A DNA stretch of 64,000 bases from Alkalitalea saponilacus (lineage in GTDB: Bacteria > Bacteroidota > Bacteroidia > Bacteroidales > Marinilabiliaceae): the NCBI RefSeq assembly GCF_900168165.1, contig NZ_FUYV01000021.1, positions 4,124 to 68,123 on the forward strand. Direction: 5' to 3'. Position 1 is the stretch's first letter, and each line of letters starts with the position of its first letter. Below the pieces are notes generated by a model, which searched no databases, was not told the DNA's origin, and saw nothing but the letters and a program-made list of their open reading frames with translations. Of this stretch, positions 45,557-57,636 are shown piece after piece. Both the position numbers and the translations under genes were made by a program.

Positions 45557-48500
45557 CTACCCATGAATTTCCTTTAAAAAGTCGGTTGGTTTCATTCCCA
45601 TTTCTTTGGAAAAACAGCGACTAAAATACTTGGGGTCTGAAAATCCTACCATAAAACTGACCTCAGAAACGGATAGCTTATCCTGACGAAAGATTTGTGC
45701 AGCTCTCTTAATACGCATGGACCGAATGAATTCTACAAGTGATAATCCTGTTAAAGCCCTGACTTTTTTAAGAATTATGGAATGACTCATATGCATTTCA
45801 TCAATCAGTGTGGTTACATCAAACATAGGATCAGCCATATTCTGTTCAGTAACCTCAATCAACTTCTTGAGAAACTTTTCGTCCATGGGAGTAATGGACT
45901 CTTCGGTTGGTTCAAGAACCATTTTTTTGCTAAATCTCATTTTAAATGCCTTCTGACTGCTCAAAAGGGAGTTTACCTGGGCCTCTAGCACGCTGATGCT
46001 AAAAGGTTTGGTTATATAACTATCTGCTCCAATGGACAATCCTTCTACAATATTATCTTCACCAGATCGTGCCGTAAGCATAACAACAGGGATGTGGCTG
46101 GTCTCTTCCCTACTTTTTAGTTTTCCAGTCAATTGTACGCCATCCATTCCTGGCAACATGACGTCGCATATGACCAAATCAGGCATGATATTGACAATTT
46201 CATCAAACGCATCCTTTCCATTCATAAAGAGATGAGTGACAAATTTTTTACTGAAAAATGATTTCAAATAACCCGAAAGATCTAAGTCATCCTCCACCAC
46301 AACTAAAACGGGCAATTTTGAATCTGAAACGGAATCTGACCCGGAGTCTTTAATCATCAAGGAATTAGAAATAACATCAGACTCCACTCCTGGTTGATCG
46401 AAATCATTCCCTAACTGTGAATGTTTATAAGAATCGGTTGCTTCATTCTGACTAACTGGCAGGACAACCTCAAAACAACAACCCTTTTCAGGCAAATTCG
46501 ACGCAGTTACAGTTCCTTTATGCTGATCAATAAACTCCTTTACGATCGATAAGCCAATGCCAGATCCGCCCATATATTCAAACTGCTGGTTTTTAGATTG
46601 ATAAAAACGATTAAAGACATTTTCCAGTTCACTTTCGGGGATTCCGGGACCAGAGTCACATACTCGCAGAATGACGTGTTGCTCAATCAAATCTTCCTCT
46701 CCAACATTTCCGGAACAACTGATTGAGATTCTTAATTCACCCTTTTGTGGCGTAAACTTTAGAGAATTGGACAGGAGGTTGTATAAAACTGTCCCAATTA
46801 GGCGCTTATCAGCATGAATAAATGCTTCATCTCCCTGATCATGATAAACCTTTATCTCTTTTTGTTTAATAATGGATTCAAAATCTAATAACACCTCCTG
46901 GATCAATACATCAAGAGAAAACCGCGATGGCCTTAACTTGAACTGTCCCTTCTCCATTTTCCTCAATTCCAGCAACTGATTTACCTGATTTAGAAGCCTT
47001 TTGACATTTCGATAAATCATATTAAGCGACTCGGAAACATCAGATGGCAAAGATTTATTGCCTATCATTTCCTGAAGGGGAGCATTGATTAGCGTTAAAG
47101 GTGTTCGAATTTCATGAGAAACATTTGTAAAGAATCTCATTTTTGCCTCGGCAAGCTCAGTCTCTTTTTTATTCTCCAGACTCTCAATAATGAGCTGATT
47201 TTTCTTTTTTACAGCAATAAGAGAGTATTTTCTGAATACATATAGAAGAAAAAGAAACAGCGCTGTATAAAAAATATAGGCCCACTTGGTTAACCACAAC
47301 GGTGGATTAATTACAATGTGTAACTCAGTTAATTCAGGAGCCCATTCTCCATCGTTATTCGTTGCACGAACCTGAAAAATATACTCTCCAAAACTCAAGT
47401 TGGTATATGTGGCTCTTCTGTTTTGACTTCCAACATTTTGCCATTCATCATTAAATCCTAAGAGTCGGTAACTGTATCGAATTTTTTCAGGGCTCGAAAA
47501 ATGCATGGCCGAAAACTCAAAGGAAATCTCATTATCAGAATGTGCCAACCTTAGCTGCTTTGTATTCGCAATGTCTTTCTCCAGGATTCTTCGACCTCCA
47601 ACTCGTTGTTTTGGTTTTACTGAACGATTGTGTAATCGAAAATCCGTTATTCGTACTTTGGCGTGAAACGGATTGATAGATATACTGTCGGGATTAAAAA
47701 GAGTTATACCACCAACTCCACCAAAATACATCAACCCCGAACGTTTATCATAAAATGCACTGTTTTGAAGGAATTGAACGGATGGAAGTCCATCATTCTC
47801 TCCATAATTTATAATGCTCTGATCAAATGGAGAATAACGGCTTAAACCGTTATTCGTTCCCAGCCATAAATGATTATTTCCATCTTCTAAAATAGTATAA
47901 ACCAAGCCACCAGGTAACCCATTCCTTTCACTTATAACAGAAAATTGGGCATCACCATCCAGCACCGTTTTGCGAAAATCGTCAGCCTCGTTCACGACCA
48001 GCCTGTTTAAGCCTCTCCCGGAGGCCAGCCAAATGTTTCCGGCCTCATCTTCAAACACACTGTAAATATCATTATAAGAAAGGGATCCTGGAATTTCAGG
48101 TATATGACGATAAACTGTAAAGTCAGCAGTTTGATTGATGACATCATCAATATGTGCTACATTTACACCACCACCTTTTGTGCCAACCCATAAAAAATCA
48201 TTAGAGTCTAAATAAATGCTAAGGATTTTGTCACTGCTTAAACCCAGTAATTCACCAGTTTCTTCATTAAACTGAATAATTTCACGTGTTGACTTATTAA
48301 TATATCCCAACCCCTGCCCCCAGGTTCCAAACCAAATGTTTCCACGGTTATCTTCCATTAATGCAAAAACAAAACCCTCTACAATATAGCTTTCAAATCC
48401 TTTTGTTTCTGTATAACGCACTAAACTATTGGTGGCAGAACCAATCCACAATGCTCCTTGTTCGTCTATTGCAAGTGCAAGAATCTCACTTTTCCATTGA

Positions 48501-49780
48501 CCGTGTGACAAAATGACTCTTGGGATATTTTTTCTTTTAGATATATCGCCTCCATTAATCTCAAATACATCTATTCCAGCAGAGGATGTACCTACCCATA
48601 AAACATTATCCTCGCCCACAATTGCTGATACAAGATGGTCACTCAAACCAGAATTCGGAGAAACACCTGGAACTATCGACCGGAACTGTTTGGCGTATAA
48701 ATCAGAAAAAACAAGTCCTCTACTCTCAGTCCCAATCCACAAAACACCCGTTCGGTCAATTAGTAAACAATTGATAATGTTATCGGGAATGGTTCCGGAT
48801 TCAATCACAGAATAATTAAAAACCCTTTCAACTTTTGCCTGAGGTGAAATCAATACCATACCTGCGCCACGCGTGGCTAACCAGAGATTCCCACGATGAT
48901 CCTCTCGAATATCTTCGACCCAATCAACTGGCAGACGTCTTTCAATGGGTGCATTGGAATCATAAACAACAACCTCATAAAGTGATGGAGTTGGTCGTTT
49001 GTTAATTTGCAATAGACCATCATAAGTTGTTGCCCACAAACGCCCCTTACTGTCTCTTAAAAACCTGGTGACAACTGTAAACCCTATAGTTTGTTCTGAA
49101 AGAGATTTAAATTCGTTGCGTTCAAGATCATATACAAATAATCCCTCTTCGGCGCCAATCAGCATAAATCCGGGTTCATGATGATAAATAGCCGTTACAG
49201 AAATATTCTTACGGGTTGGAATGAAGGGCTCATTGGTGTCTCTTCTATATATGGCATTCGGTGTTAGGTTTCTGAAAACAATTTGACCGTTAATCTCTTC
49301 TTTTAAAAATAGGCCTTCAGATGTTCCGGCCCATAAATTACCATCATAATCATAATATATATCCCTGATTAGATCATCATATGTCAGATTACTAAAACGC
49401 TGTATGATTCCAGTATGCAGCTCAAGGCGATTTAAACCTCCGCTCCTGGTTCCAACCCATAAATATCGGTCTCCCTCCATTTCCAAAGCACTAATCTCAT
49501 TGCTCGACAATGAATTACTGTCATAAGGATCATACTTATAGCTCACGAATTCGTACCCATCAAATCTGTTCAATCCGTCTTTCGTTCCCACCCACAAAAA
49601 CCCTGTGCTGTCCTGAAGCATGGATAATACAGATGATTGAGATAGTGTATTTGTGGCATTAACTGATCTGAAGCTAATGGAGGTAGCAGAAGTTGCATGT
49701 GAATGTGCTATACAACTCAATAAAAAAAGAATTAAATAGCGGCAGTAAACAAAGAAACTTATACCCGATATAATGTTCAT
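45557..49780 (-). CDS. hybrid two-component system sensor/AraC-type regulator
   Basis: A 1407-residue one-protein signalling system. Order: signal peptide; two-bladed periplasmic sensor of Reg_prop beta-propeller repeats (repeated DSTGFLWVGTKDGLNRF-like segments to about 750); Y_Y_Y domain (about 775-845); membrane helix (near 855-880). In the cytoplasm come HisKA (FFTNVSHEIRTPL, His near 890), HATPase (CDSGPGIPESE, GGSGIGLSIVKEF), receiver (LVICDVMLPGMDG with the Asp) and AraC-type helix-turn-helix (VGFSDPKYFSRCFSKEMGMKPTDF). It would sense an oligosaccharide in the periplasm and activate the island. ATG 49780 is preferred to a GTG at 49795. A TAGATTTG -7-like box lies at 49806-49813 without a clear -33. 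Confidence 0.95.
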   Translation of the reverse strand: MNIISGISFFVYCRYLILFLLSCIAHSHATSATSISFRSVNATNTLSQSSVLSMLQDSTGFLWVGTKDGLNRFDGYEFVSYKYDPYDSNSLSSNEISALEMEGDRYLWVGTRSGGLNRLELHTGIIQRFSNLTYDDLIRDIYYDYDGNLWAGTSEGLFLKEEINGQIVFRNLTPNAIYRRDTNEPFIPTRKNISVTAIYHHEPGFMLIGAEEGLFVYDLERNEFKSLSEQTIGFTVVTRFLRDSKGRLWATTYDGLLQINKRPTPSLYEVVVYDSNAPIERRLPVDWVEDIREDHRGNLWLATRGAGMVLISPQAKVERVFNYSVIESGTIPDNIINCLLIDRTGVLWIGTESRGLVFSDLYAKQFRSIVPGVSPNSGLSDHLVSAIVGEDNVLWVGTSSAGIDVFEINGGDISKRKNIPRVILSHGQWKSEILALAIDEQGALWIGSATNSLVRYTETKGFESYIVEGFVFALMEDNRGNIWFGTWGQGLGYINKSTREIIQFNEETGELLGLSSDKILSIYLDSNDFLWVGTKGGGVNVAHIDDVINQTADFTVYRHIPEIPGSLSYNDIYSVFEDEAGNIWLASGRGLNRLVVNEADDFRKTVLDGDAQFSVISERNGLPGGLVYTILEDGNNHLWLGTNNGLSRYSPFDQSIINYGENDGLPSVQFLQNSAFYDKRSGLMYFGGVGGITLFNPDSISINPFHAKVRITDFRLHNRSVKPKQRVGGRRILEKDIANTKQLRLAHSDNEISFEFSAMHFSSPEKIRYSYRLLGFNDEWQNVGSQNRRATYTNLSFGEYIFQVRATNNDGEWAPELTELHIVINPPLWLTKWAYIFYTALFLFLLYVFRKYSLIAVKKKNQLIIESLENKKETELAEAKMRFFTNVSHEIRTPLTLINAPLQEMIGNKSLPSDVSESLNMIYRNVKRLLNQVNQLLELRKMEKGQFKLRPSRFSLDVLIQEVLLDFESIIKQKEIKVYHDQGDEAFIHADKRLIGTVLYNLLSNSLKFTPQKGELRISISCSGNVGEEDLIEQHVILRVCDSGPGIPESELENVFNRFYQSKNQQFEYMGGSGIGLSIVKEFIDQHKGTVTASNLPEKGCCFEVVLPVSQNEATDSYKHSQLGNDFDQPGVESDVISNSLMIKDSGSDSVSDSKLPVLVVVEDDLDLSGYLKSFFSKKFVTHLFMNGKDAFDEIVNIMPDLVICDVMLPGMDGVQLTGKLKSREETSHIPVVMLTARSGEDNIVEGLSIGADSYITKPFSISVLEAQVNSLLSSQKAFKMRFSKKMVLEPTEESITPMDEKFLKKLIEVTEQNMADPMFDVTTLIDEMHMSHSIILKKVRALTGLSLVEFIRSMRIKRAAQIFRQDKLSVSEVSFMVGFSDPKYFSRCFSKEMGMKPTDFLKEIHG

Positions 49781-49795
49781 ATTACCAAGTTTCAC

Positions 49796-50141: not shown

Positions 50142-50981
50142 TCATCCATGGCAAAGATCATCCACCTCATCCAGAATTTTTTCACGTTTATTTCCTTTTA
50201 GGCGCAAATTGTCCAACACCCCCGGCTTTTCAAGCAACTGGCGACACAGCACCACGCCCTGATTCAGCAATTGTGCTTTTTCGGCTTTTGAAAGCTGGGT
50301 AATAGCAGTAATGGGGAAAATACGCATCTCTTCAATCAACTGACGCAAATTTCTTTTCTCAGGAAAATCCCACCCCAACAGCTTTAACCCGCTGCAAAGG
50401 CCAAAATCTATGGCATCGGTTGTAAAACGTGTATTGGTAACCACCCATCCCTGAAAATTGAAACGTTGATAGGCAGCATCTTTTTGCCTCTCTCTTACAA
50501 TATCATCTATTCGTGAACGGATGTAAAGCGGAACCTGCACACTGGCAAATTTCCCGGGACTGTTGTAAAACTTGCATTCAACCAAATGCTGATGAGTCAG
50601 GTTGGTGGCTATCACATCCATTTCGTGTGAAACACAGTGTCCCTTAACAACCTCTCCTACTTGTACTTCAAATCCCTGATATTTAAAAAGCTGACCGATA
50701 AAATGTTCGAACGGATATCCGGAGGGGCCTAACTCCATAATGGCTTTCTTAAGGCTATACCTTGCTGCCATGCTTCGACGTTTACGTCGAAGCAAAGAAA
50801 AAGCACGGTTGTATATCCTTCTGGTAGTCATTCCTTCCTTAAGCCATGATTCAACATCTTCGACCACTTCCAGAATAAGAGCACCATCGGCTCCTGAACG
50901 CTTTAATGATTGCTCAAGCTTTTCAACCGAAAAGGGCTGCATTTCTCCTGAGGCTTTTTCTATGAGAATCTTTTTTGACAT
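50142..50981 (-). CDS. ATP-cone domain fused to Mrr-like nuclease
   Basis: The 279-residue protein starts with an ATP-cone-like domain (KILIEKASGEMQPFSVEKLE, ending about residue 90; this domain binds ATP/dATP in ribonucleotide reductases and NrdR). A PD-(D/E)XK nuclease of the Mrr/restriction-endonuclease type follows: PFEHFIGQLFKYQGFEVQV (about 94-112), EMDVIA and LVECKFY (about 123-140), where Asp, Glu and Lys would be catalytic. The C-terminal part (about 230-279) looks like a helix-hairpin-helix region. No methyltransferase partner is present, so it is not a standard restriction system. It stands 83 bases from the MscS gene on the same strand and could be co-transcribed with it. Its role is unknown. 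Confidence 0.82.
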   Translation of the reverse strand: MSKKILIEKASGEMQPFSVEKLEQSLKRSGADGALILEVVEDVESWLKEGMTTRRIYNRAFSLLRRKRRSMAARYSLKKAIMELGPSGYPFEHFIGQLFKYQGFEVQVGEVVKGHCVSHEMDVIATNLTHQHLVECKFYNSPGKFASVQVPLYIRSRIDDIVRERQKDAAYQRFNFQGWVVTNTRFTTDAIDFGLCSGLKLLGWDFPEKRNLRQLIEEMRIFPITAITQLSKAEKAQLLNQGVVLCRQLLEKPGVLDNLRLKGNKREKILDEVDDLCHG

Positions 50982-51064
50982 ATAAATATTAAGAAAAATT
51001 TTAAGACAAATATGTAAGTTTTTTATGTGTATTGATATACATCAACAAAGCAATCTTTTACAAA

Positions 51065-52078
51065 CTAAAATAAATCACCTTTTCGGATAACTCCCTGTTG
51101 CAATAATTCCCGAATGACAATTTCAGTCATATCGCTTTTAAACTGAAACTCGTAACGGATGTCCATCACATATGCTTTAATGCGCATTTTAAGGTATGAA
51201 CGTCTCTCTTTTACTTCATTAAAAAAGACCACCACAATGGGTTTTTCAAGATAGATAAATCGTGATACCTGAGCTGTTTCGATGGCTATTTTTCGTGCTT
51301 TCTGCGTATCCACATCAATGGGTAGATATATTTCGGCCACCACCTGGCAATTTAATTCGCCGGAATTAGCATTTGAAACGGAAGAGTTCATCAGTTCCAT
51401 ATTTGGAACTGATACCACCGAGTCGTCGGGTGTCACAATTCGTGTGGCACGCAAGCCAATTTCTATGACCTCTCCATAATATTTTCCTGTTTCAATCTTA
51501 TCACCAACCTGAAAAGGCCTGTCAAACAACAACATAATTCCTCCAAAAACATTCTTCAGCAAATCCTGTGCAGCCAGACCAATGGCAATGGCAGCAGAGG
51601 CCCACATGGCTAAGTAGGTCTCCTTTGGCGGGTTATATATCCCTTTTATGATAATAAATACAACAAAAATCCAAAGTAATATGCGTACCACCGGAATGAT
51701 ACTCTTCAGGCCAATCCTTAACTTGCTGCTTCTTTCGGCTATGGTTTCCAGAATTTTCACCACAAACCTAATGATTAGGTAACTTAAGACAATAATTACC
51801 AGAGTCCAGAAAATTTTGCTGAAAGAGATGACATTAATCACCTCTCCGGGTGTTCCAATTTCCTGTCGCAATTGTTCTCGCTCCTTTTCGAAGTCTTCAA
51901 TGGCGGTAATAGCTGCAGTATCAATCTCTGTTTTTCCAATTACGACCGTGAGTGTGTCGGGAAACGCAACCACCAAAGTATCATCTTGAACATCAGGAGC
52001 TGATAACGTATCAGATTCAACAGCCATGGACAGCGAAGCCGTTAAAAAGAACAAGATGGAGAGTATATATTTTATCAT
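51065..52078 (-). CDS. MscS-family mechanosensitive channel
   Basis: The 337-residue protein has a signal peptide and a polar periplasmic N-terminal region (about 20-85), then two membrane helices (about 88-112 and 131-152). The conserved MscS pore helix TM3 follows (AAIAIGLAAQDLLKNVFGGIMLLFDRPFQVGDKI, about 160-195 with its Gly/Ala spacing). The beta domain (GLRATRIVTPDDSVVSVPNMELM) and the C-terminal alpha/beta vestibule come next. Such channels open under membrane tension and release solutes. ATG 52078 is used; a TTG at 52099 would overlap the upstream ATPase. It begins 17 bases after the large ATPase gene, so the two are an operon, an unusual partnership for MscS. Confidence 0.9.
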   Translation of the reverse strand: MIKYILSILFFLTASLSMAVESDTLSAPDVQDDTLVVAFPDTLTVVIGKTEIDTAAITAIEDFEKEREQLRQEIGTPGEVINVISFSKIFWTLVIIVLSYLIIRFVVKILETIAERSSKLRIGLKSIIPVVRILLWIFVVFIIIKGIYNPPKETYLAMWASAAIAIGLAAQDLLKNVFGGIMLLFDRPFQVGDKIETGKYYGEVIEIGLRATRIVTPDDSVVSVPNMELMNSSVSNANSGELNCQVVAEIYLPIDVDTQKARKIAIETAQVSRFIYLEKPIVVVFFNEVKERRSYLKMRIKAYVMDIRYEFQFKSDMTEIVIRELLQQGVIRKGDLF

Positions 52079-52095
52079 TATCACTATAATTAAAA

Positions 52096-55000
52096 TCAAC
52101 CAATAAAGTTACGGGACTGAAGATGCCTGACAACCGGACTAAAAACAATTGGATTCACATTGTATTTTGTTTTTGGCCGGATGAGCAACCCTTTTTCGAG
52201 CATAGGAACCAGAATATTCCTGGCTGAATTTTCAGATTTACCAGTAATCTGAATATAATCCTGAGTTGACAAACCATCGTGTAACACGATGGTTTGAAGA
52301 ACAAACAATTCATCAGCACCCAAATCTTTTACAAATGAAAAATCAATCTCTTTCACATTCCCCATTTTAATTTCACGCTCAGTTACCTTGCGAGTAAGCC
52401 TAAGCCAGTATAGCTGCGCTAAACTGATGTTTCCGTAACTTAATCTTGTTAGTTTTCTGAAAAAATTCTTTCTCAGCATTTCCTGTTGAGCTTTTTCATC
52501 CGAATTTTTATACCGCTTTTGATAAATAATATCCTCATCATCGTCGAAATGGAGGCGATACCCGCTGATATTATTCCGGCGTGAAATAATCTCTTCCATT
52601 ACGTCAGGTTGCATATCCTGCAGGTGAACTATGGAAGTAAAATAGCCTGAGACATGAATGGTTTTATCGAGATATCTCCAGGCATGCTTTGTAAATGCAC
52701 CTATCCACAATACTTTTTTCATGGTGTTCGACATTAGGTCGAACAACAACATCAAATCATCGAAACCATTTACTTTTTTCAGATAGAAATGGTGTAGATT
52801 TTCAATAACTACCACACTCTGACTATCTTTATTAATCAAATAGTCTATTATTTGTTCGTTTGATTCAAACCGCTCTTCGACTCCAAACAACTCAGTAAAA
52901 AAATCAAAATAGCGATTGGTTGTATGTATTTTTTCGCTCAACGTTACCCTGTATATATCCTTTTCCTGAATTTTCTCATTTAAAAAACGGTTGAGCAAAG
53001 AAGTAACTCCACTCCCCTTTTCGCCAACCACTGCAATGGTTATAAAACGGTCTTTTCGCCAATTGTTAAGTGCTTCGGTTAGCGTATTCAGCTCTTCCTC
53101 CCTGCCTACAAAAAAACGTGCTTCACTAACAGGGGTGAGCTGATACAAACGTTGATAAACAAAGGGCAGCTTGCGCAAACCTTCAGAAGTATCATTGATG
53201 AATTCGTATAACTCAAATGCCAGACCTACCGATTCATGTTTTAACCCGATTCGATACTGAAGCTTGTCGGTTCCGGATTTTATTTTTTTATAGTTGCTCT
53301 TTACAAACTCTGTCGCAACAGGAATGGCCGTTTTAAATCCATTCACCACTTTTTTTCTGAACTCCTTTGACCTTTCGAGGGTTTTAATGCGTGCTATTTT
53401 AAGGTTGAGTTCGAAAATAGATTCACTGTTGGTGAGCTTCTGAATCTGGTCGTTAAACCTATTAATGGTAACACCAAAATCGGAGCTGATGGCTTTTCCG
53501 GTATTCTCAACAATTGCTTGCGACTCAGAAAGCAACTCCAGAGCACGAACTGTACCTTCCTTTGCGCTAATTATTGCCTCGCAAGCTGTTCCCTTTGTTT
53601 CATTCAACATCATGGCAGCCGACTCCAGACTAAAATCCCATACTGAACCTAGGCCTGTCAGCTTAATTCTTGCTTCTTCAAGATTTTGCTCAACCATGGC
53701 CATAATTTTTTCGGCATCAGCAACAAAAACCGGCAAAGCTTCAAAGCTTAATAACCCTCGCGGAGAAATGGAATTTACATCATTCTCCTGCACCGGACAA
53801 GCATATTTGCGCTCCGAAACAAACGTGCGTTTCTCAGAGACTTTATTTATTTCTGCTTTAAATTTAAGTAAGAGTTGCCTGTAGTCGCTCTTAAAACAAA
53901 TGGCCAGTTTTTCGGTTAAGTGTGTAATGTGTTTATCAACAAACTCACTGGCAGCCAGTTTACGCTCTTTTGCCACCAACTGAAGAACAGATTTTTTTTG
54001 TCCCTCACATTTTTCAAAACGCTCCCGACTTTGGTTTATGAACTGCTCCACAGCAGCATAACCTTCTTCCAATTCGCCATGAATGTAATCATGGGTAACT
54101 TTCTCAAATTCGTAATATTCATGAAACACGCTCAAGTAGAGCAACGAAATCTCCACATCCAAAGTCCAATCATCCAAAAGGGTAAGCCATGACCTGTTCC
54201 ATCCCTGAAGAATCCCATTACAATGGCCGTGAATTCGGTTACAGTATGCATCAACCACTCTGGTTTTGTATTTGCCGTTTGGCAAATACAATGTATCTGA
54301 AAGATTATAAAGTTCATCAACTTGTAAAAAAACATTCTTTATGTTCTTTTCAACGGCTATTTCAAATTCCTGTAAAAGGTCCTTTCTTCTTGTCGCTTTT
54401 CTAATCTCAGGCCATTTATCTTCGAAATTCAGGGAAATATCATCCTCACTTTTTCCCAAGGTAGATTTACAATGTTTATCAAGGAACATATCCTGCTCCC
54501 ATAATTCCAAAAACACCTTGGTGTATTGGGTCAATAATTCATCAAGAAATTCAATTTGTTTTTGATGCAACCTGCCATAAGTATGATAAGAAAGGATTTG
54601 ATTAAAAGGGATACGTCTTACTCTGTAAACCGTAATATCCTTAGGCGGTTTTCGGAATAATTTCCGAAAACCGTTCCACACTTTTCTAAAACTTTGAAGC
54701 AACGATGCCCGAAAATTTTGAAATATTGCAGCCGGGTATCGAAACGGATTCTTTAACCGGGAAAGTTCGTACCATGTGTATGGCTCCCTCGCGGTTACTC
54801 TTTTAGGTATATCTTTTATCCAACCTTGAAACTCGTTGTCAAAAAGATGTGGAAGTTTATGAATACCGGTATTTGTGGAAGTTTTAAGATGCTCTTGGAG
54901 CATCTTAAATATTTCTGACCTGAAGTTTCTTTGCAGCTCAACATATTTTGCACCATCATTGGATGCTTTTAGTTCTTTTTTTAAATGGCTATACCATTTA

Positions 55001-55125
55001 AAATACTCACCAACAATCTTTTCACGCCGGTCTGTTTCTGAATCAACAAAACTTTTAACAACAGGCCAAACTGCTGATATATATGAAGAATATGCTTCGG
55101 CAACTATTTTGTTTTTAAAACCCAT
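52096..55125 (-). CDS. large P-loop ATPase of unknown function with long helical N-terminal region
   Basis: I do not recognise a named family. The 1009-residue protein has about 660 residues of mostly helical, charged N-terminal sequence. A FFVGREEELNTLTEAL motif (about 672-687), typical of STAND/AAA ATPases, and a P-loop GEKGSGVTS (about 701-709) follow. A Walker-B-like VVVIENLHHF (about 771-780) and a likely winged-helix region at the end (about 940-1000, DGLSTQDYIQITGKSENSARNILVPMLEKGLL) complete it. No membrane segment is evident. It probably switches on ATP binding and may bind DNA or a partner protein. It lies just before the MscS gene. ATG 55125 is used; a TTG lies five codons earlier. 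STAND-like ATPases in bacteria often work in signalling or defence, which is speculation here. Confidence 0.75.
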   Translation of the reverse strand: MGFKNKIVAEAYSSYISAVWPVVKSFVDSETDRREKIVGEYFKWYSHLKKELKASNDGAKYVELQRNFRSEIFKMLQEHLKTSTNTGIHKLPHLFDNEFQGWIKDIPKRVTAREPYTWYELSRLKNPFRYPAAIFQNFRASLLQSFRKVWNGFRKLFRKPPKDITVYRVRRIPFNQILSYHTYGRLHQKQIEFLDELLTQYTKVFLELWEQDMFLDKHCKSTLGKSEDDISLNFEDKWPEIRKATRRKDLLQEFEIAVEKNIKNVFLQVDELYNLSDTLYLPNGKYKTRVVDAYCNRIHGHCNGILQGWNRSWLTLLDDWTLDVEISLLYLSVFHEYYEFEKVTHDYIHGELEEGYAAVEQFINQSRERFEKCEGQKKSVLQLVAKERKLAASEFVDKHITHLTEKLAICFKSDYRQLLLKFKAEINKVSEKRTFVSERKYACPVQENDVNSISPRGLLSFEALPVFVADAEKIMAMVEQNLEEARIKLTGLGSVWDFSLESAAMMLNETKGTACEAIISAKEGTVRALELLSESQAIVENTGKAISSDFGVTINRFNDQIQKLTNSESIFELNLKIARIKTLERSKEFRKKVVNGFKTAIPVATEFVKSNYKKIKSGTDKLQYRIGLKHESVGLAFELYEFINDTSEGLRKLPFVYQRLYQLTPVSEARFFVGREEELNTLTEALNNWRKDRFITIAVVGEKGSGVTSLLNRFLNEKIQEKDIYRVTLSEKIHTTNRYFDFFTELFGVEERFESNEQIIDYLINKDSQSVVVIENLHHFYLKKVNGFDDLMLLFDLMSNTMKKVLWIGAFTKHAWRYLDKTIHVSGYFTSIVHLQDMQPDVMEEIISRRNNISGYRLHFDDDEDIIYQKRYKNSDEKAQQEMLRKNFFRKLTRLSYGNISLAQLYWLRLTRKVTEREIKMGNVKEIDFSFVKDLGADELFVLQTIVLHDGLSTQDYIQITGKSENSARNILVPMLEKGLLIRPKTKYNVNPIVFSPVVRHLQSRNFIG

Positions 55126-55221
55126 ATTCAAAATATTCAATTTCGAAGTTAAATTAGGGAAAATCTTTCAGACTTTTGCAACAACCATCTGCCAGAAACA
55201 TCGAATTAAGAATAAAGGAAG

Positions 55222-56394
55222 CTATTTTAGGATTCTCTCCCCTGCAAAATTCATGGCAATGGCTCCAAGCGGTGCGGTCACTACAATGGAAAGTACAGCA
55301 ATGGTTAAAATAACATCTCCCCCCGGAACACCCATGGCCATGGGAACTGCGCCAATTGCGGCCTGTACAGTAGCTTTTGGACTGTATGCAAGAATGCAGA
55401 AAAAACGCTCCTTAAAACTAAAACCGGTTTTAATCAATGATACCATAACTCCCACGGAGCGTGCCAATAATCCGGCGGCAATGATTAAAAGTCCCGCGAC
55501 CCCGGCCTCTAATGCCAGAAAAACGTCCACTTCTGCACCCACCAGCGTGAATAGAATAATTTCAGCGAAAATCCACGATTTATTGAGCTTTGAGGATAAA
55601 TCAATCGCTGTTTTTTGTTCTTTTTCAAGAATAATAAAGCCAATGACCATCACACCAAGCAAAGATGCCAAAGGAATAAGCGACTGAACAGATTCAAGTG
55701 TTGTTAACAGAATGGCCGCCCCCAACATAATTAAAACCTTTTTGGTGTTACGGGTCTCAAACTTCCTGAAAATCCATAACAATAAAAACGCAATCACAAT
55801 ACCTAGTGCGATGCCTGTTATGACTGCCACGGGTATAGATAATACCTGAGTCGTAATATTCACTTGTTGACCGCCATAAAATCCTGCAAAAGCAGAAAAT
55901 ATGGTTATGGCCACCACATCGTCCAAGGATGCACCTGCCAATATCATGGTTGGAATTCCCTTTTCACTTCCTTTGCCACGGTCGATAAAGGATAACATTT
56001 TGGGAACAATAACAGCTGGCGAAACAGCTGCCAGAATAAACCCCAGCATTCCTGCTTCTACAAAACCCAAATCCCAAAAATACCATGCAACAAAAAGAAC
56101 CATAAATCCCTCAAAAAGAACCGGGATGAATCCAAGTCTAATGGCCGGAGCACCTACCATTTTCAAGGTTTGCCTGTGTAATCCCATCCCTGCTCGCAAA
56201 AGAATGATGATTAGAGCCATCTTTCTTAAATCCTCAGAAGCTATTAAAATGCTTTCATCTATCCAGTTGAGTGCATTTGGCCCAATGGCTATTCCAACAA
56301 ATAAAATCCCAAGAAATCCGGGTAAACGCAATTTTGTAAAAAGATAATGAGCTGTTATACCTAACAGACCGATGATAGCAAGACTTAAAGCCAT
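55222..56394 (-). CDS. cation/proton antiporter of the CPA2 (Na+/H+, K+/H+) family
   Basis: The 390-residue protein consists almost entirely of membrane helices (about 12) in the sodium/hydrogen exchanger pattern. It begins ALSLAIIGLLGITAHYLF, and has GASLDDVVAITIFSAFAG (about 153-170), which contains the paired Asp region used for ion binding in CPA2 exchangers. Late helices are rich in Gly/Ala (GAVPMAMGVPGG). No C-terminal RCK/TrkA-N domain is attached, so it is unlike full KefB/C. It would exchange Na+ or K+ for H+ at the inner membrane. It is upstream of the ATPase on the same strand (96-base gap). Its ion specificity cannot be read from sequence. Confidence 0.88.
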   Translation of the reverse strand: MALSLAIIGLLGITAHYLFTKLRLPGFLGILFVGIAIGPNALNWIDESILIASEDLRKMALIIILLRAGMGLHRQTLKMVGAPAIRLGFIPVLFEGFMVLFVAWYFWDLGFVEAGMLGFILAAVSPAVIVPKMLSFIDRGKGSEKGIPTMILAGASLDDVVAITIFSAFAGFYGGQQVNITTQVLSIPVAVITGIALGIVIAFLLLWIFRKFETRNTKKVLIMLGAAILLTTLESVQSLIPLASLLGVMVIGFIILEKEQKTAIDLSSKLNKSWIFAEIILFTLVGAEVDVFLALEAGVAGLLIIAAGLLARSVGVMVSLIKTGFSFKERFFCILAYSPKATVQAAIGAVPMAMGVPGGDVILTIAVLSIVVTAPLGAIAMNFAGERILK

Positions 56395-56476
56395 TTTGGA
56401 GTTTTAATTATTTACAATACATTATTGTTCGGGAAAAATAATTCCATATTATTTAAGTGCTCAAGCCGCACGGGCT

Positions 56477-56613
56477 CTTACTTTTTTGCTACAGCAAAAA
56501 AAAGTAAGCAAAAAATGCCGCCGCTGCAAGTAATTTCCTAAAAATCAAGTTCATTGTCTAAAATCCGGAAACTCGCTACGCTCAAACAACCCGGATTTTT
56601 AACGACAATAAAC
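56477..56613. repeat. intergenic element with two hairpins
   Basis: The left part forms a stem between 56477-56490 and 56493-56508 (CTTACTTTTTTGCT against its complement with a 2-base bulge). The right part has long arms, 56549-56568 and 56591-56613, both centred on AAAATCCGG/CCGGATTTT. The layout, GC-richer than the flanks, looks like a dispersed repeat, but no second copy is in the window. No gene is seen between 56395 and 56718. Confidence 0.5.
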
Positions 56614-56718: not shown

Positions 56719-57636
56719 TTAATCGGACAACAGTGATTTACAATCAACCACTCTTCCCACAAGAATTCCACTAACGCGCGGCAAACCTGCCAGATATTCA
56801 TGTAAAGGTACCGGGGTTAATTCAACTTTATTACTTCGGGTTGACGCATGCAACAGATGAAGTCGGTCGTTGTGATGCATTGCAAACCCTGTATGGGAAA
56901 CATCAAGCCCTTCGATGGTAGTGACAAAGGCAATGATGTCGCCGTTATTGATGTGTAATTCTTTATCCTTAATGATATCTTTGGTAAGGTATTTCATGGA
57001 ATACCCCGCAATCCGGCCCTCAATTCTCTGCAAAGGGAAAACATACTCTGGATTTGCCTCCAACTGACGATAAAAACCGGGATTTGTAGACATAAAATGC
57101 ACTTCCGAATTAAACGCTTCATTTCCAATAGAGTCGCTGATTAGAATCAGACTCCCTTGTTTTTCTTTCACTTTTAACCATTCGGTAAAGTAGTGAAGCC
57201 GCGACAGGTAACCCTCCGGCTTTCCCTGACGGTATCGGATTAACGCCAAATTCCTGTAAAAATCGTCTATGTCCATACGACCGGAGAACTGACAACAGGC
57301 CATTGCCAAAACGTACTCAACAAAAGTGGTACAATCCATCTCCCGCAAGTTAACTACCAGGCGCTCCTCCCCTTCCAACTCCAGTGTGGATGCAACATAT
57401 TCGGTTCCGGCAAAAAACTCAGCAACAGACATTATTCGTGACGACAAATTGGAGAGAGTATCACCTGATAACCTAAACTCAGTCATCACTTCTTCAAATA
57501 TCAGAGAATCCTGTAAAGTTGCATATATTTCAAAATCGATCAACGGCTTTTTAGTGTCGGATGATTTTTGCGCACATGCAATAAGACTAAAGGAACATAT
57601 TATAACGAGCAGTGATTTGATTTTTAAAAAATACAT
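56719..57636 (-). CDS. DUF1460-type NlpC/P60-like cell-wall hydrolase lipoprotein
   Basis: The 305-residue protein has a lipoprotein signal (lipobox SLIAC, C21). It belongs to the DUF1460 group, which resembles N-acetylmuramoyl-L-alanine amidases of papain-like fold. The likely catalytic cysteine is in REMDCTTFVEYVLA (about residues 99-112), and the likely His in GLDVSHTGFAMHH (about 245-257). The family is found mainly in Bacteroidota and Proteobacteria. It is thought to cut peptidoglycan or its peptides in the periplasm. ATG 57636 is used. It is transcribed away from the carboxylase operon, and is preceded by a -7-like TAATTTTG at 57684-57691. Confidence 0.85.
   Translation of the reverse strand: MYFLKIKSLLVIICSFSLIACAQKSSDTKKPLIDFEIYATLQDSLIFEEVMTEFRLSGDTLSNLSSRIMSVAEFFAGTEYVASTLELEGEERLVVNLREMDCTTFVEYVLAMACCQFSGRMDIDDFYRNLALIRYRQGKPEGYLSRLHYFTEWLKVKEKQGSLILISDSIGNEAFNSEVHFMSTNPGFYRQLEANPEYVFPLQRIEGRIAGYSMKYLTKDIIKDKELHINNGDIIAFVTTIEGLDVSHTGFAMHHNDRLHLLHASTRSNKVELTPVPLHEYLAGLPRVSGILVGRVVDCKSLLSD

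What the first reader, a model, noticed from the sequence alone, without database searches (positions are those of the whole stretch)
50142..55125. Large P-loop ATPase coupled to an MscS channel and a nuclease
A 1009-residue ATPase with FVGREEEL/P-loop core and a winged-helix end is 17 bases from an MscS channel; the nuclease follows 83 bases later on the same strand. A STAND-like switch, a membrane channel and a nucleotide-sensing nuclease would be a logical stress or defence module. This is the strongest candidate for an undescribed protein system in the window.
Basis: inference. Interest (0 to 1): 0.6.

Follow-up and report, generated by a model that had tools for sequence, protein, structure and literature searches.

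The report
ATPase-MscS channel pair for ion balance
Next to an MscS-type membrane channel this bacterium encodes a large ATPase-like protein; the same pair recurs in many other bacteria, sometimes fused to salt transporters, so it is probably an undescribed control unit for the cell's ion and water balance rather than an anti-virus defence.

Summary
The genes are real: ATPase 52096-55125, MscS 51065-52078, nuclease 50142-50981, all minus strand, with 17 and 83 bases between them; a Na+/H+-exchanger gene lies 96 bases upstream. The core is the ATPase-MscS pair: among relatives fetched by ATPase similarity alone, an MscS gene is adjacent on the same strand in 126 of 129 testable cases (Bacteroidota, Ignavibacteria, Calditrichota, Campylobacterota). 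The nuclease looks like a passenger: 16 of 198 order genomes hold both genes, adjacent only in the window and its congener (two Geofilum loci outside that survey also have it).

Function points to ions, not phages. Relatives are fused to SLC12-type cotransporters (13 loci) or exchanger-type domains (7 loci). TrkH/TrkA potassium-uptake genes sit beside those 7, one other fusion and two unfused pairs ordered TrkA-TrkH-exchanger-ATPase-MscS. No relative was found in phage or plasmid records. The ATPase has a long-helix domain without a significant Foldseek match, then an ORC/Cdc6-type AAA+ and winged helix. In the window its P-loop lacks the catalytic lysine (GEKGSGVTS). Best reading: a cytosolic, nucleotide-responsive regulator of an MscS channel and cation transporters. 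The regulation itself is inferred.

The parts
52096..55125 (-). ATPase-like regulator, 1009 aa; no hydrophobic segment above my threshold
   Evidence: ORF; AAA_22 30.1 bits (cut-off 27); hydropathy; AF2 model pLDDT 86.8, pTM 0.64
53206..55125 (-). N-terminal long-helix domain, residues 1-640 of the ATPase
   Evidence: model pLDDT 89.4, pTM 0.78; no PDB match at Foldseek E<=0.001; homologous to the helical part of fused and MscS-first forms by hhalign, E 7e-16 to 1e-20
52099..53175 (-). ORC/Cdc6-type AAA+ plus winged-helix module, residues 651-1009
   Evidence: 7jgr_G Z 16.5, 256 aligned, rmsd 3.9; 1w5t_C Z 15.1, 330 aligned, rmsd 5.6
52999..53025 (-). degenerate Walker A GEKGSGVTS (residues 701-709): V at the catalytic-lysine position
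52789..52815 (-). Walker B-like VVVIENLHH (residues 771-779)
51065..52078 (-). MscS-family channel, 337 aa, 17 bases after the ATPase
   Evidence: PF00924 E 1.1e-20; same-strand adjacency in 126 of 129 testable relatives
55222..56394 (-). CPA-type Na+/H+ exchanger gene 96 bases upstream; possible but not proven member of the unit in this genus
   Evidence: PF00999 E 2.9e-42; also in Natronoflexus L051, and by my profile in no other of the 80 named loci; other exchangers precede or are fused to relatives but are not close to it
50142..50981 (-). Mrr/AF1548-type nuclease with a sub-threshold ATP-cone match; judged a passenger
   Evidence: PDB 1y88 AF1548 E 2.3e-26; adjacent to the ATPase in 2 of 16 order genomes that hold both

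Best explanation
The unit is ATPase plus MscS, an ion and osmotic homeostasis module. The ATPase is a cytosolic regulator: a long-helix arm carrying an ORC/Cdc6-type AAA+ and winged-helix head. I propose that the head reads nucleotide state (or a related cytosolic signal) and the helical arm passes it to the MscS channel, setting when the channel opens, and to a cation transporter that in other lineages is part of the same polypeptide (SLC12-type cotransporter or Na+/H+ exchanger type). Uptake or exchange and release of K+, Na+ or Cl- would then be set together. In the window the P-loop has lost its lysine, so the head is more likely a nucleotide-binding or structural switch than a motor. Shown: gene pairing, fusions, neighbours, predicted fold, residue loss. 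Inferred: that the two proteins touch, that the ATPase gates the channel, the signal sensed, and membership of the window's exchanger.
For: Pairing: MscS downstream on the same strand in 77 of 80 named loci, the other 3 at contig ends; 126 of 129 testable cases over all fetched sets; median gap 4 nt, 65 of 77 between -4 and 16. Local control: MscS hits lie within four genes on the same strand in 124 of 134 loci, and 2 hits lie farther away. Co-inheritance: distances of 74 ATPase and MscS pairs correlate, r 0.61, best of 1000 permutations 0.20; three Campylobacterota pairs have the same three non-Campylobacterota neighbours (L062, L104, L057) in both trees, as if the pair moved together. Transporters: SLC12 fusion, L042 to KCC4 7d99 E 3.1e-74, AA_permease in all 11 SLC12-type members of A3 and the SLC12 Pfam domain in 5, L170 also; exchanger-fused ATPases followed by MscS; TrkH hits near 11 of 134 loci, 0 among 718 farther genes; L099 and L103 read TrkA-TrkH-exchanger-ATPase-MscS. 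The same helical domain in unfused and fused forms.
Against: No experiment shows contact, gating or an osmotic phenotype. Most unfused pairs have no recognised transporter next to them: in 136 nearest neighbour genes Pfam finds CorA in 8 and PF00999 in 3. The window's exchanger was found in no named locus but Natronoflexus and is only distantly related to the fused and the L099/L103 exchangers. The Walker A lysine is missing in 89 of 121 unfused rows, so an ATP-driven mechanism cannot be general. Mirror-tree correlation also reflects shared species history. The gene is patchy: 40 of 198 order genomes, 78 of 395 phylum genomes.
Confidence: 0.68

Rival explanations
1. Defence: the ATPase is a STAND-like sensor that opens the MscS channel (and with it activates the nuclease) upon phage infection, killing the cell.
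For: FVGREEEL and AAA+ plus winged helix recall STAND proteins; resistosome chains appear at ranks 40-41 of the Foldseek list; sub-threshold nSTAND matches; the nuclease has weak PADLOC matches (CARF_PDDEXK E 5e-4, ZorD E 2e-3) and is adjacent in the window, Natronoflexus and Geofilum.
Against: No relatives in the phage and plasmid records or among viral-contig candidates; PADLOC finds only scattered hits in 136 neighbours (no baseline), CARF_TM E 0.014 for the ATPase and nothing for MscS; nuclease mostly not adjacent; fusions to SLC12-type and exchanger-type domains and TrkH/TrkA neighbours; the chain ends with the winged helix, without sensor repeats.
Confidence: 0.08
2. Passive scaffold: the ATPase-like protein is a pseudo-ATPase that assembles or places the MscS channel and transporter in the membrane, without nucleotide sensing.
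For: Walker A lysine absent in 89 of 121 unfused rows, Walker B mostly with E; large helical domain with no significant fold match.
Against: All 21 transporter-fused rows and 30 unfused rows keep the lysine; in the 63-row alignment, where the lysine is mostly lost, G704, G706, R850, S854 and G855 stay at 90% or more, suggesting a kept site.
Confidence: 0.2
3. Three-gene or larger operon including the nuclease, linking ionic stress to DNA cleavage.
For: Same strand, 83-base gap, no promoter- or terminator-like site on the minus strand in that gap (a weak consensus scan); order kept in Natronoflexus and two Geofilum loci.
Against: Of 16 order genomes with both genes, adjacency in 2; of 80 named loci, 3 with the nuclease.
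Confidence: 0.04

Closest known systems
MscS / MscK family mechanosensitive channels (E. coli)
   Same: Partner protein has the MscS beta-domain above cut-off; best NCBIfam match MscK E 2.2e-16, far below that model's cut-off.
   Different: Known MscS channels are gated by membrane tension (MscK also by K+; recalled); no dedicated AAA+ partner is known to me.
Trk/Ktr potassium uptake with TrkA/KtrA (RCK) regulators
   Same: Works alike in outline (recalled): a cytosolic nucleotide-binding regulator of a K+ transport protein; TrkH and TrkA genes sit beside some relatives.
   Different: The regulator here is an AAA+/winged-helix protein with a large helical domain, not an RCK protein, and its constant partner is MscS.
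SLC12 cation-chloride cotransporters (KCC, NKCC)
   Same: The N-terminal ~700 residues of the ~1700-aa relatives are SLC12-type (L042: E 3e-74; Pfam).
   Different: Animal proteins are controlled by WNK/SPAK kinases (recalled); here a regulator-like part is in the same chain, with an MscS-like gene usually next to it.
ORC/Cdc6, TnsC and STAND-clade AAA+ ATPases
   Same: AAA+ and winged-helix fold (top 50 rows Z 16.5 to 13.6).
   Different: No sign of a link to DNA replication or transposition; P-loop lysine lost in the window; long-helix N-domain.
AF1548 / Mrr-type nucleases
   Same: The nuclease matches PDB 1y88.
   Different: Judged not part of the module.

Membership tests
MscS channel family | MscS beta-domain (PF00924) above curated cut-off | tested here: met
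   73.9 bits, cut-off 20.2
MscS channel family | mechanosensitive gating | not testable with these tools
   needs patch clamp
STAND NTPase | match to a STAND NTPase profile above cut-off | tested here: not met
   nSTAND1 19.6 bits, cut-off 27.1; L165 nSTAND1 23.2 bits and L162 nSTAND3 20.3 bits, cut-off 27.2, also under
STAND NTPase | C-terminal sensor repeats after the winged helix | tested here: not met
   the protein ends with the winged helix in the model
Canonical P-loop ATPase | Walker A lysine and Walker B aspartate | tested here: not met
   GEKGSGVTS and VVVIENL in the window protein
AAA+ ORC/Cdc6-type fold | AAA+ core with lid and winged helix | tested here: met
   7jgr_G Z 16.5, 256 aligned, rmsd 3.9 over 651-978; 1w5t_C Z 15.1, 330 aligned, rmsd 5.6 over 652-1007, on a predicted model
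Known anti-phage system (PADLOC-DB 2.0.0) | confident match of ATPase or MscS to a model | tested here: not met
   ATPase best CARF_TM E 0.014, MscS none at E<=0.1
Na+/H+ exchanger (CPA) | PF00999 above cut-off | tested here: met
   window gene 145.3 bits, cut-off 26.2
SLC12 cotransporter (relatives only) | transport domain and C-terminal domain of KCC/NKCC | tested here: met
   L042: two stretches matched, the best residues 188-710 on KCC4; PF00324 in 11 and PF03522 SLC12 in 5 of the 13 A3 members, of which 11 are SLC12-type; L170 PF00324; L171 by my profile only
Mrr/ATP-cone nuclease | Mrr_cat and ATP-cone above cut-off | tested here: inconclusive
   Mrr_cat met (27.6/21), ATP-cone under (22.2/25.8)

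The most novel reading that the evidence does not exclude
A bacterial cell-volume controller not described before: one AAA+/winged-helix regulator family that governs both a salt transporter (KCC/NKCC-type, Na+/H+ exchanger type, Trk) and a release channel of the MscS family, with the regulator in many lineages turned into a lysine-less, non-hydrolysing sensor. It would be the first dedicated ATPase-type partner of an MscS channel.
Probability: 0.5. Interest if true: 0.8.

Novelty: new variant of a known kind. Interest (0 to 1): 0.62.

Why it matters
MscS channels are textbook passive tension valves (recalled). A regulator-like gene kept beside them across several phyla, and joined elsewhere to KCC/NKCC-like cotransporters and Na+/H+ exchanger-type domains, would mean that many bacteria run a regulated ion-release circuit. 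It also offers bacterial models for how SLC12 cotransporters can be controlled, and a testable case of an AAA+ head that has lost its catalytic lysine.

Tried and rejected
Rejected: nuclease as a component. Rejected: defence reading. Weakened: the idea that the window's exchanger is the unfused form of the fused exchanger domain; blastp and a tree show only distant similarity (hhalign E 8e-6), and the tree's long branches make its placing unsure. My exchanger profile was built from the window's gene plus L038, so its E-values for that group are biased; Pfam puts PF00999 over its cut-off in L038 and L161-L164, but finds none at E<=0.001 in L166; L166 and L167 (L167 not scanned with Pfam) are counted because their N-termini align with L164's at 33% and 32% identity, E about 5e-56.

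The mechanical ORF caller misled in high-GC genomes: L168, L169 and L199 seemed to lack MscS, and two of them seemed long, but tblastn shows an MscS gene beside each. I count them as unfused. Exceptions to adjacency that remain: L040, L042 (753 nt from the end of its contig) and L045.

Led nowhere: the first genome-contig scan with the single protein; PHROGs; promoter scan, 23 found against 19.3 in shuffles; fold search of the N-domain, nothing at E<=0.001; in VIA-align a designed helical bundle at Z 17.0 (188 aligned, rmsd 2.5) and bacterial dynamin stalks at Z 11.6 (233 aligned, rmsd 4.4), which for helical bundles may be only a common arrangement. No baseline was run for the neighbour scans; one search gives a near/far control for MscS, TrkH, TrkA, CorA and two exchanger types only (CorA: near in 7 loci, 3 hits farther off).

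Papers: ten searches gave listings, none of which I recognised as describing this pair; the library is open-access full text only. Beyond listings I saw passages of PMC4301019 and PMC10219603.

Selection: of the hits I fetched 20 neighbourhoods, 12 of them of the 32 matches in open frames over 1200 aa, 40 neighbourhoods, including all matches there in frames over 1200 aa. One search kept 80 of 92 relatives. Of the 68 full-length ATPases, 58 went into A4 and A5, with the window and (A4) four short forms. Duplicates were removed before the 134 count, not before the Walker counts.
Full report
What is there. On the minus strand at 50142-56394 four genes follow one another: a Na+/H+ exchanger (55222-56394), the 1009-aa ATPase (52096-55125), an MscS channel (51065-52078) and an Mrr-type nuclease (50142-50981), with gaps of 96, 17 and 83 bases. 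The window lies in a 4.56 Mb draft genome with one match to the ATPase. G143, listed as of the same genus, has a contig of the same length (89,452) as Natronoflexus pectinivorans NZ_SLWK01000013.1, so I place the window in or next to Natronoflexus.

The pair. ATPase relatives were sought by ATPase similarity alone: 40 of 198 genomes of the order, 78 of 395 of the phylum and 43 of 171 genera, and 80 kept loci with named organisms. The named ones include Natronoflexus, Geofilum, Marinifilum, Ancylomarina, Fulvivirga, Flexithrix, Reichenbachiella, Cecembia, Sunxiuqinia, Ignavibacteriaceae, a Calditrichaeota MAG and Campylobacterota (Sulfurimonas and kin). MscS follows on the same strand in 77 of the 80, median gap 4 nt; the other three stop at contig ends. 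Over all loci fetched, 134 distinct ATPase genes remain after removing duplicates. Four lie within 700 nt of a contig end and one is a fragment (L081, whose other part is counted), leaving 129. MscS is adjacent in 122 by profile, in L165 (overlapping ORF) and in L168, L169 and L199 (tblastn): 126 of 129. In some lineages it lies upstream instead (L172-L178). In the same loci MscS hits fall within four genes on the same strand in 124 of 134 loci, with 2 hits farther off.

The minimum. In Campylobacterota and in Cecembia the ATPase is only about 400 aa, the AAA+ and winged-helix part, and is still followed by MscS (L082, L085, L092, L104); L179, L180 and L196 are alike. Both proteins of the three Campylobacterota pairs have the same nearest neighbours outside Campylobacterota, and 74 pairs show correlated distances (r 0.61; permuted maximum 0.20). 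This fits transfer of the pair as one unit, though shared species history also raises such correlations.

Transporters. Thirteen relatives of about 1700 aa carry an SLC12-type cotransporter at the N-terminus: eleven in A3 with PF00324 over the threshold, five of them also with the SLC12 domain PF03522, L170 and L171 by profile; for L042 the best structure is KCC4, E 3.1e-74. Seven of about 1500 aa carry an exchanger-type domain and are followed by MscS: five with PF00999 over its cut-off (L038; L161-L164) and two, L166 and L167, by alignment to these, L166 having no PF00999 match at E<=0.001. L165 has an N-terminal stretch with about 11 hydrophobic segments and no Pfam name for it. All seven exchanger-type fusions are followed, after MscS, by TrkH- and TrkA-like genes, and L165 is preceded by them. 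Two unfused pairs, L099 and L103, read TrkA-TrkH-exchanger-ATPase-MscS, the same exchanger-ATPase-MscS order as in the window. TrkH hits are near in 11 of 134 loci and absent among 718 farther genes; CorA hits are near in 7 loci with 3 hits farther off. Most unfused pairs have no such neighbour. The exchangers of the window, of L099/L103 and of the fusions are not close relatives. I read that as repeated recruitment, but for the window alone it could be coincidence.

The ATPase. No hydrophobic segment passes my threshold. The model (pLDDT 86.8, pTM 0.64) shows a long-helix domain (1-640) and an AAA+ and winged-helix head whose best matches are ORC/Cdc6-type proteins (Z 16.5, 256 aligned, rmsd 3.9). 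The helical domain folded alone (pLDDT 89.4) has no Foldseek match at E<=0.001. It is homologous to the helical part of the SLC12-fused, exchanger-fused and MscS-first forms (hhalign E 7e-16, 2e-16, 1e-20). The Walker A lysine is missing in the window and in 89 of 121 unfused rows (30 have it, 2 have gaps), but present in all 21 transporter-fused rows (L168 and L169 counted as unfused; duplicates not removed). So enzymatic ATP use is not likely to be a general property; nucleotide sensing or scaffolding is the alternative.

The nuclease. It matches AF1548 (PDB 1y88, E 2.3e-26). Of 198 order genomes 35 have it; 16 have both it and the ATPase, adjacent only in the window and G143 and on different contigs in the other 14. 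Most of those 14 carry the long, SLC12-type ATPase, so the comparison with unfused pairs rests on fewer genomes, plus the 80 named loci, of which 3 have the nuclease. Geofilum (L061, L130) keeps it after MscS, followed by the same kind of hybrid two-component gene as in the window. I take it as local synteny, not part of the module.

Defence. PADLOC gives nothing convincing for the ATPase or MscS, and weak matches for the nuclease. In 136 neighbour genes scattered hits appear, at most 4 per family; no baseline was run. No relative among viral-contig candidates, plasmids or phages.

Conclusion.

Noticed in passing
L039, L041, L043, L044, L046-L049 (MscS-like genes): The MscS-like partner of SLC12-fused ATPases is short (233-259 aa) and very divergent (11-18% identity to the window's), so it may be a regulator or a small channel rather than a standard MscS.
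   Followed up: partly
L164:10797-12041 and its like in L038, L161-L163, L166, L167 (L165 three genes away): A ~414-aa gene directly precedes each of the 7 exchanger-type fusions; no Pfam match for the L164 copy, yet related to the fused exchanger domain (hhalign 97.1%).
   Followed up: partly
L165:6062-10459: Fused ATPase with about 11 hydrophobic segments at its N-terminus and no Pfam name for that part.
   Followed up: no
window 45557-49795: Hybrid two-component regulator downstream of the nuclease; a homologue directly follows the nuclease in Geofilum too, while Natronoflexus has a 914-aa ORF between them.
   Followed up: no
window 56719-57636; L051:7691-8629; L052:713-1894; L130:8745-9932: An AmiA-like gene lies just upstream of the pair (or of the exchanger) in these loci.
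   Followed up: no
L060:13054-14173; L081:9950-11179: MscS (L060) and ATPase (L081) are each split over two ORFs, a frameshift or assembly error.
   Followed up: no
L077, L083, L102 (after MscS); L107, L127, L064 (before the ATPase): A second MscS-type gene next to the pair.
   Followed up: no
window about 56470-56510: A-/T-rich inverted repeat, seen by eye, in the gap upstream of the exchanger gene.
   Followed up: no
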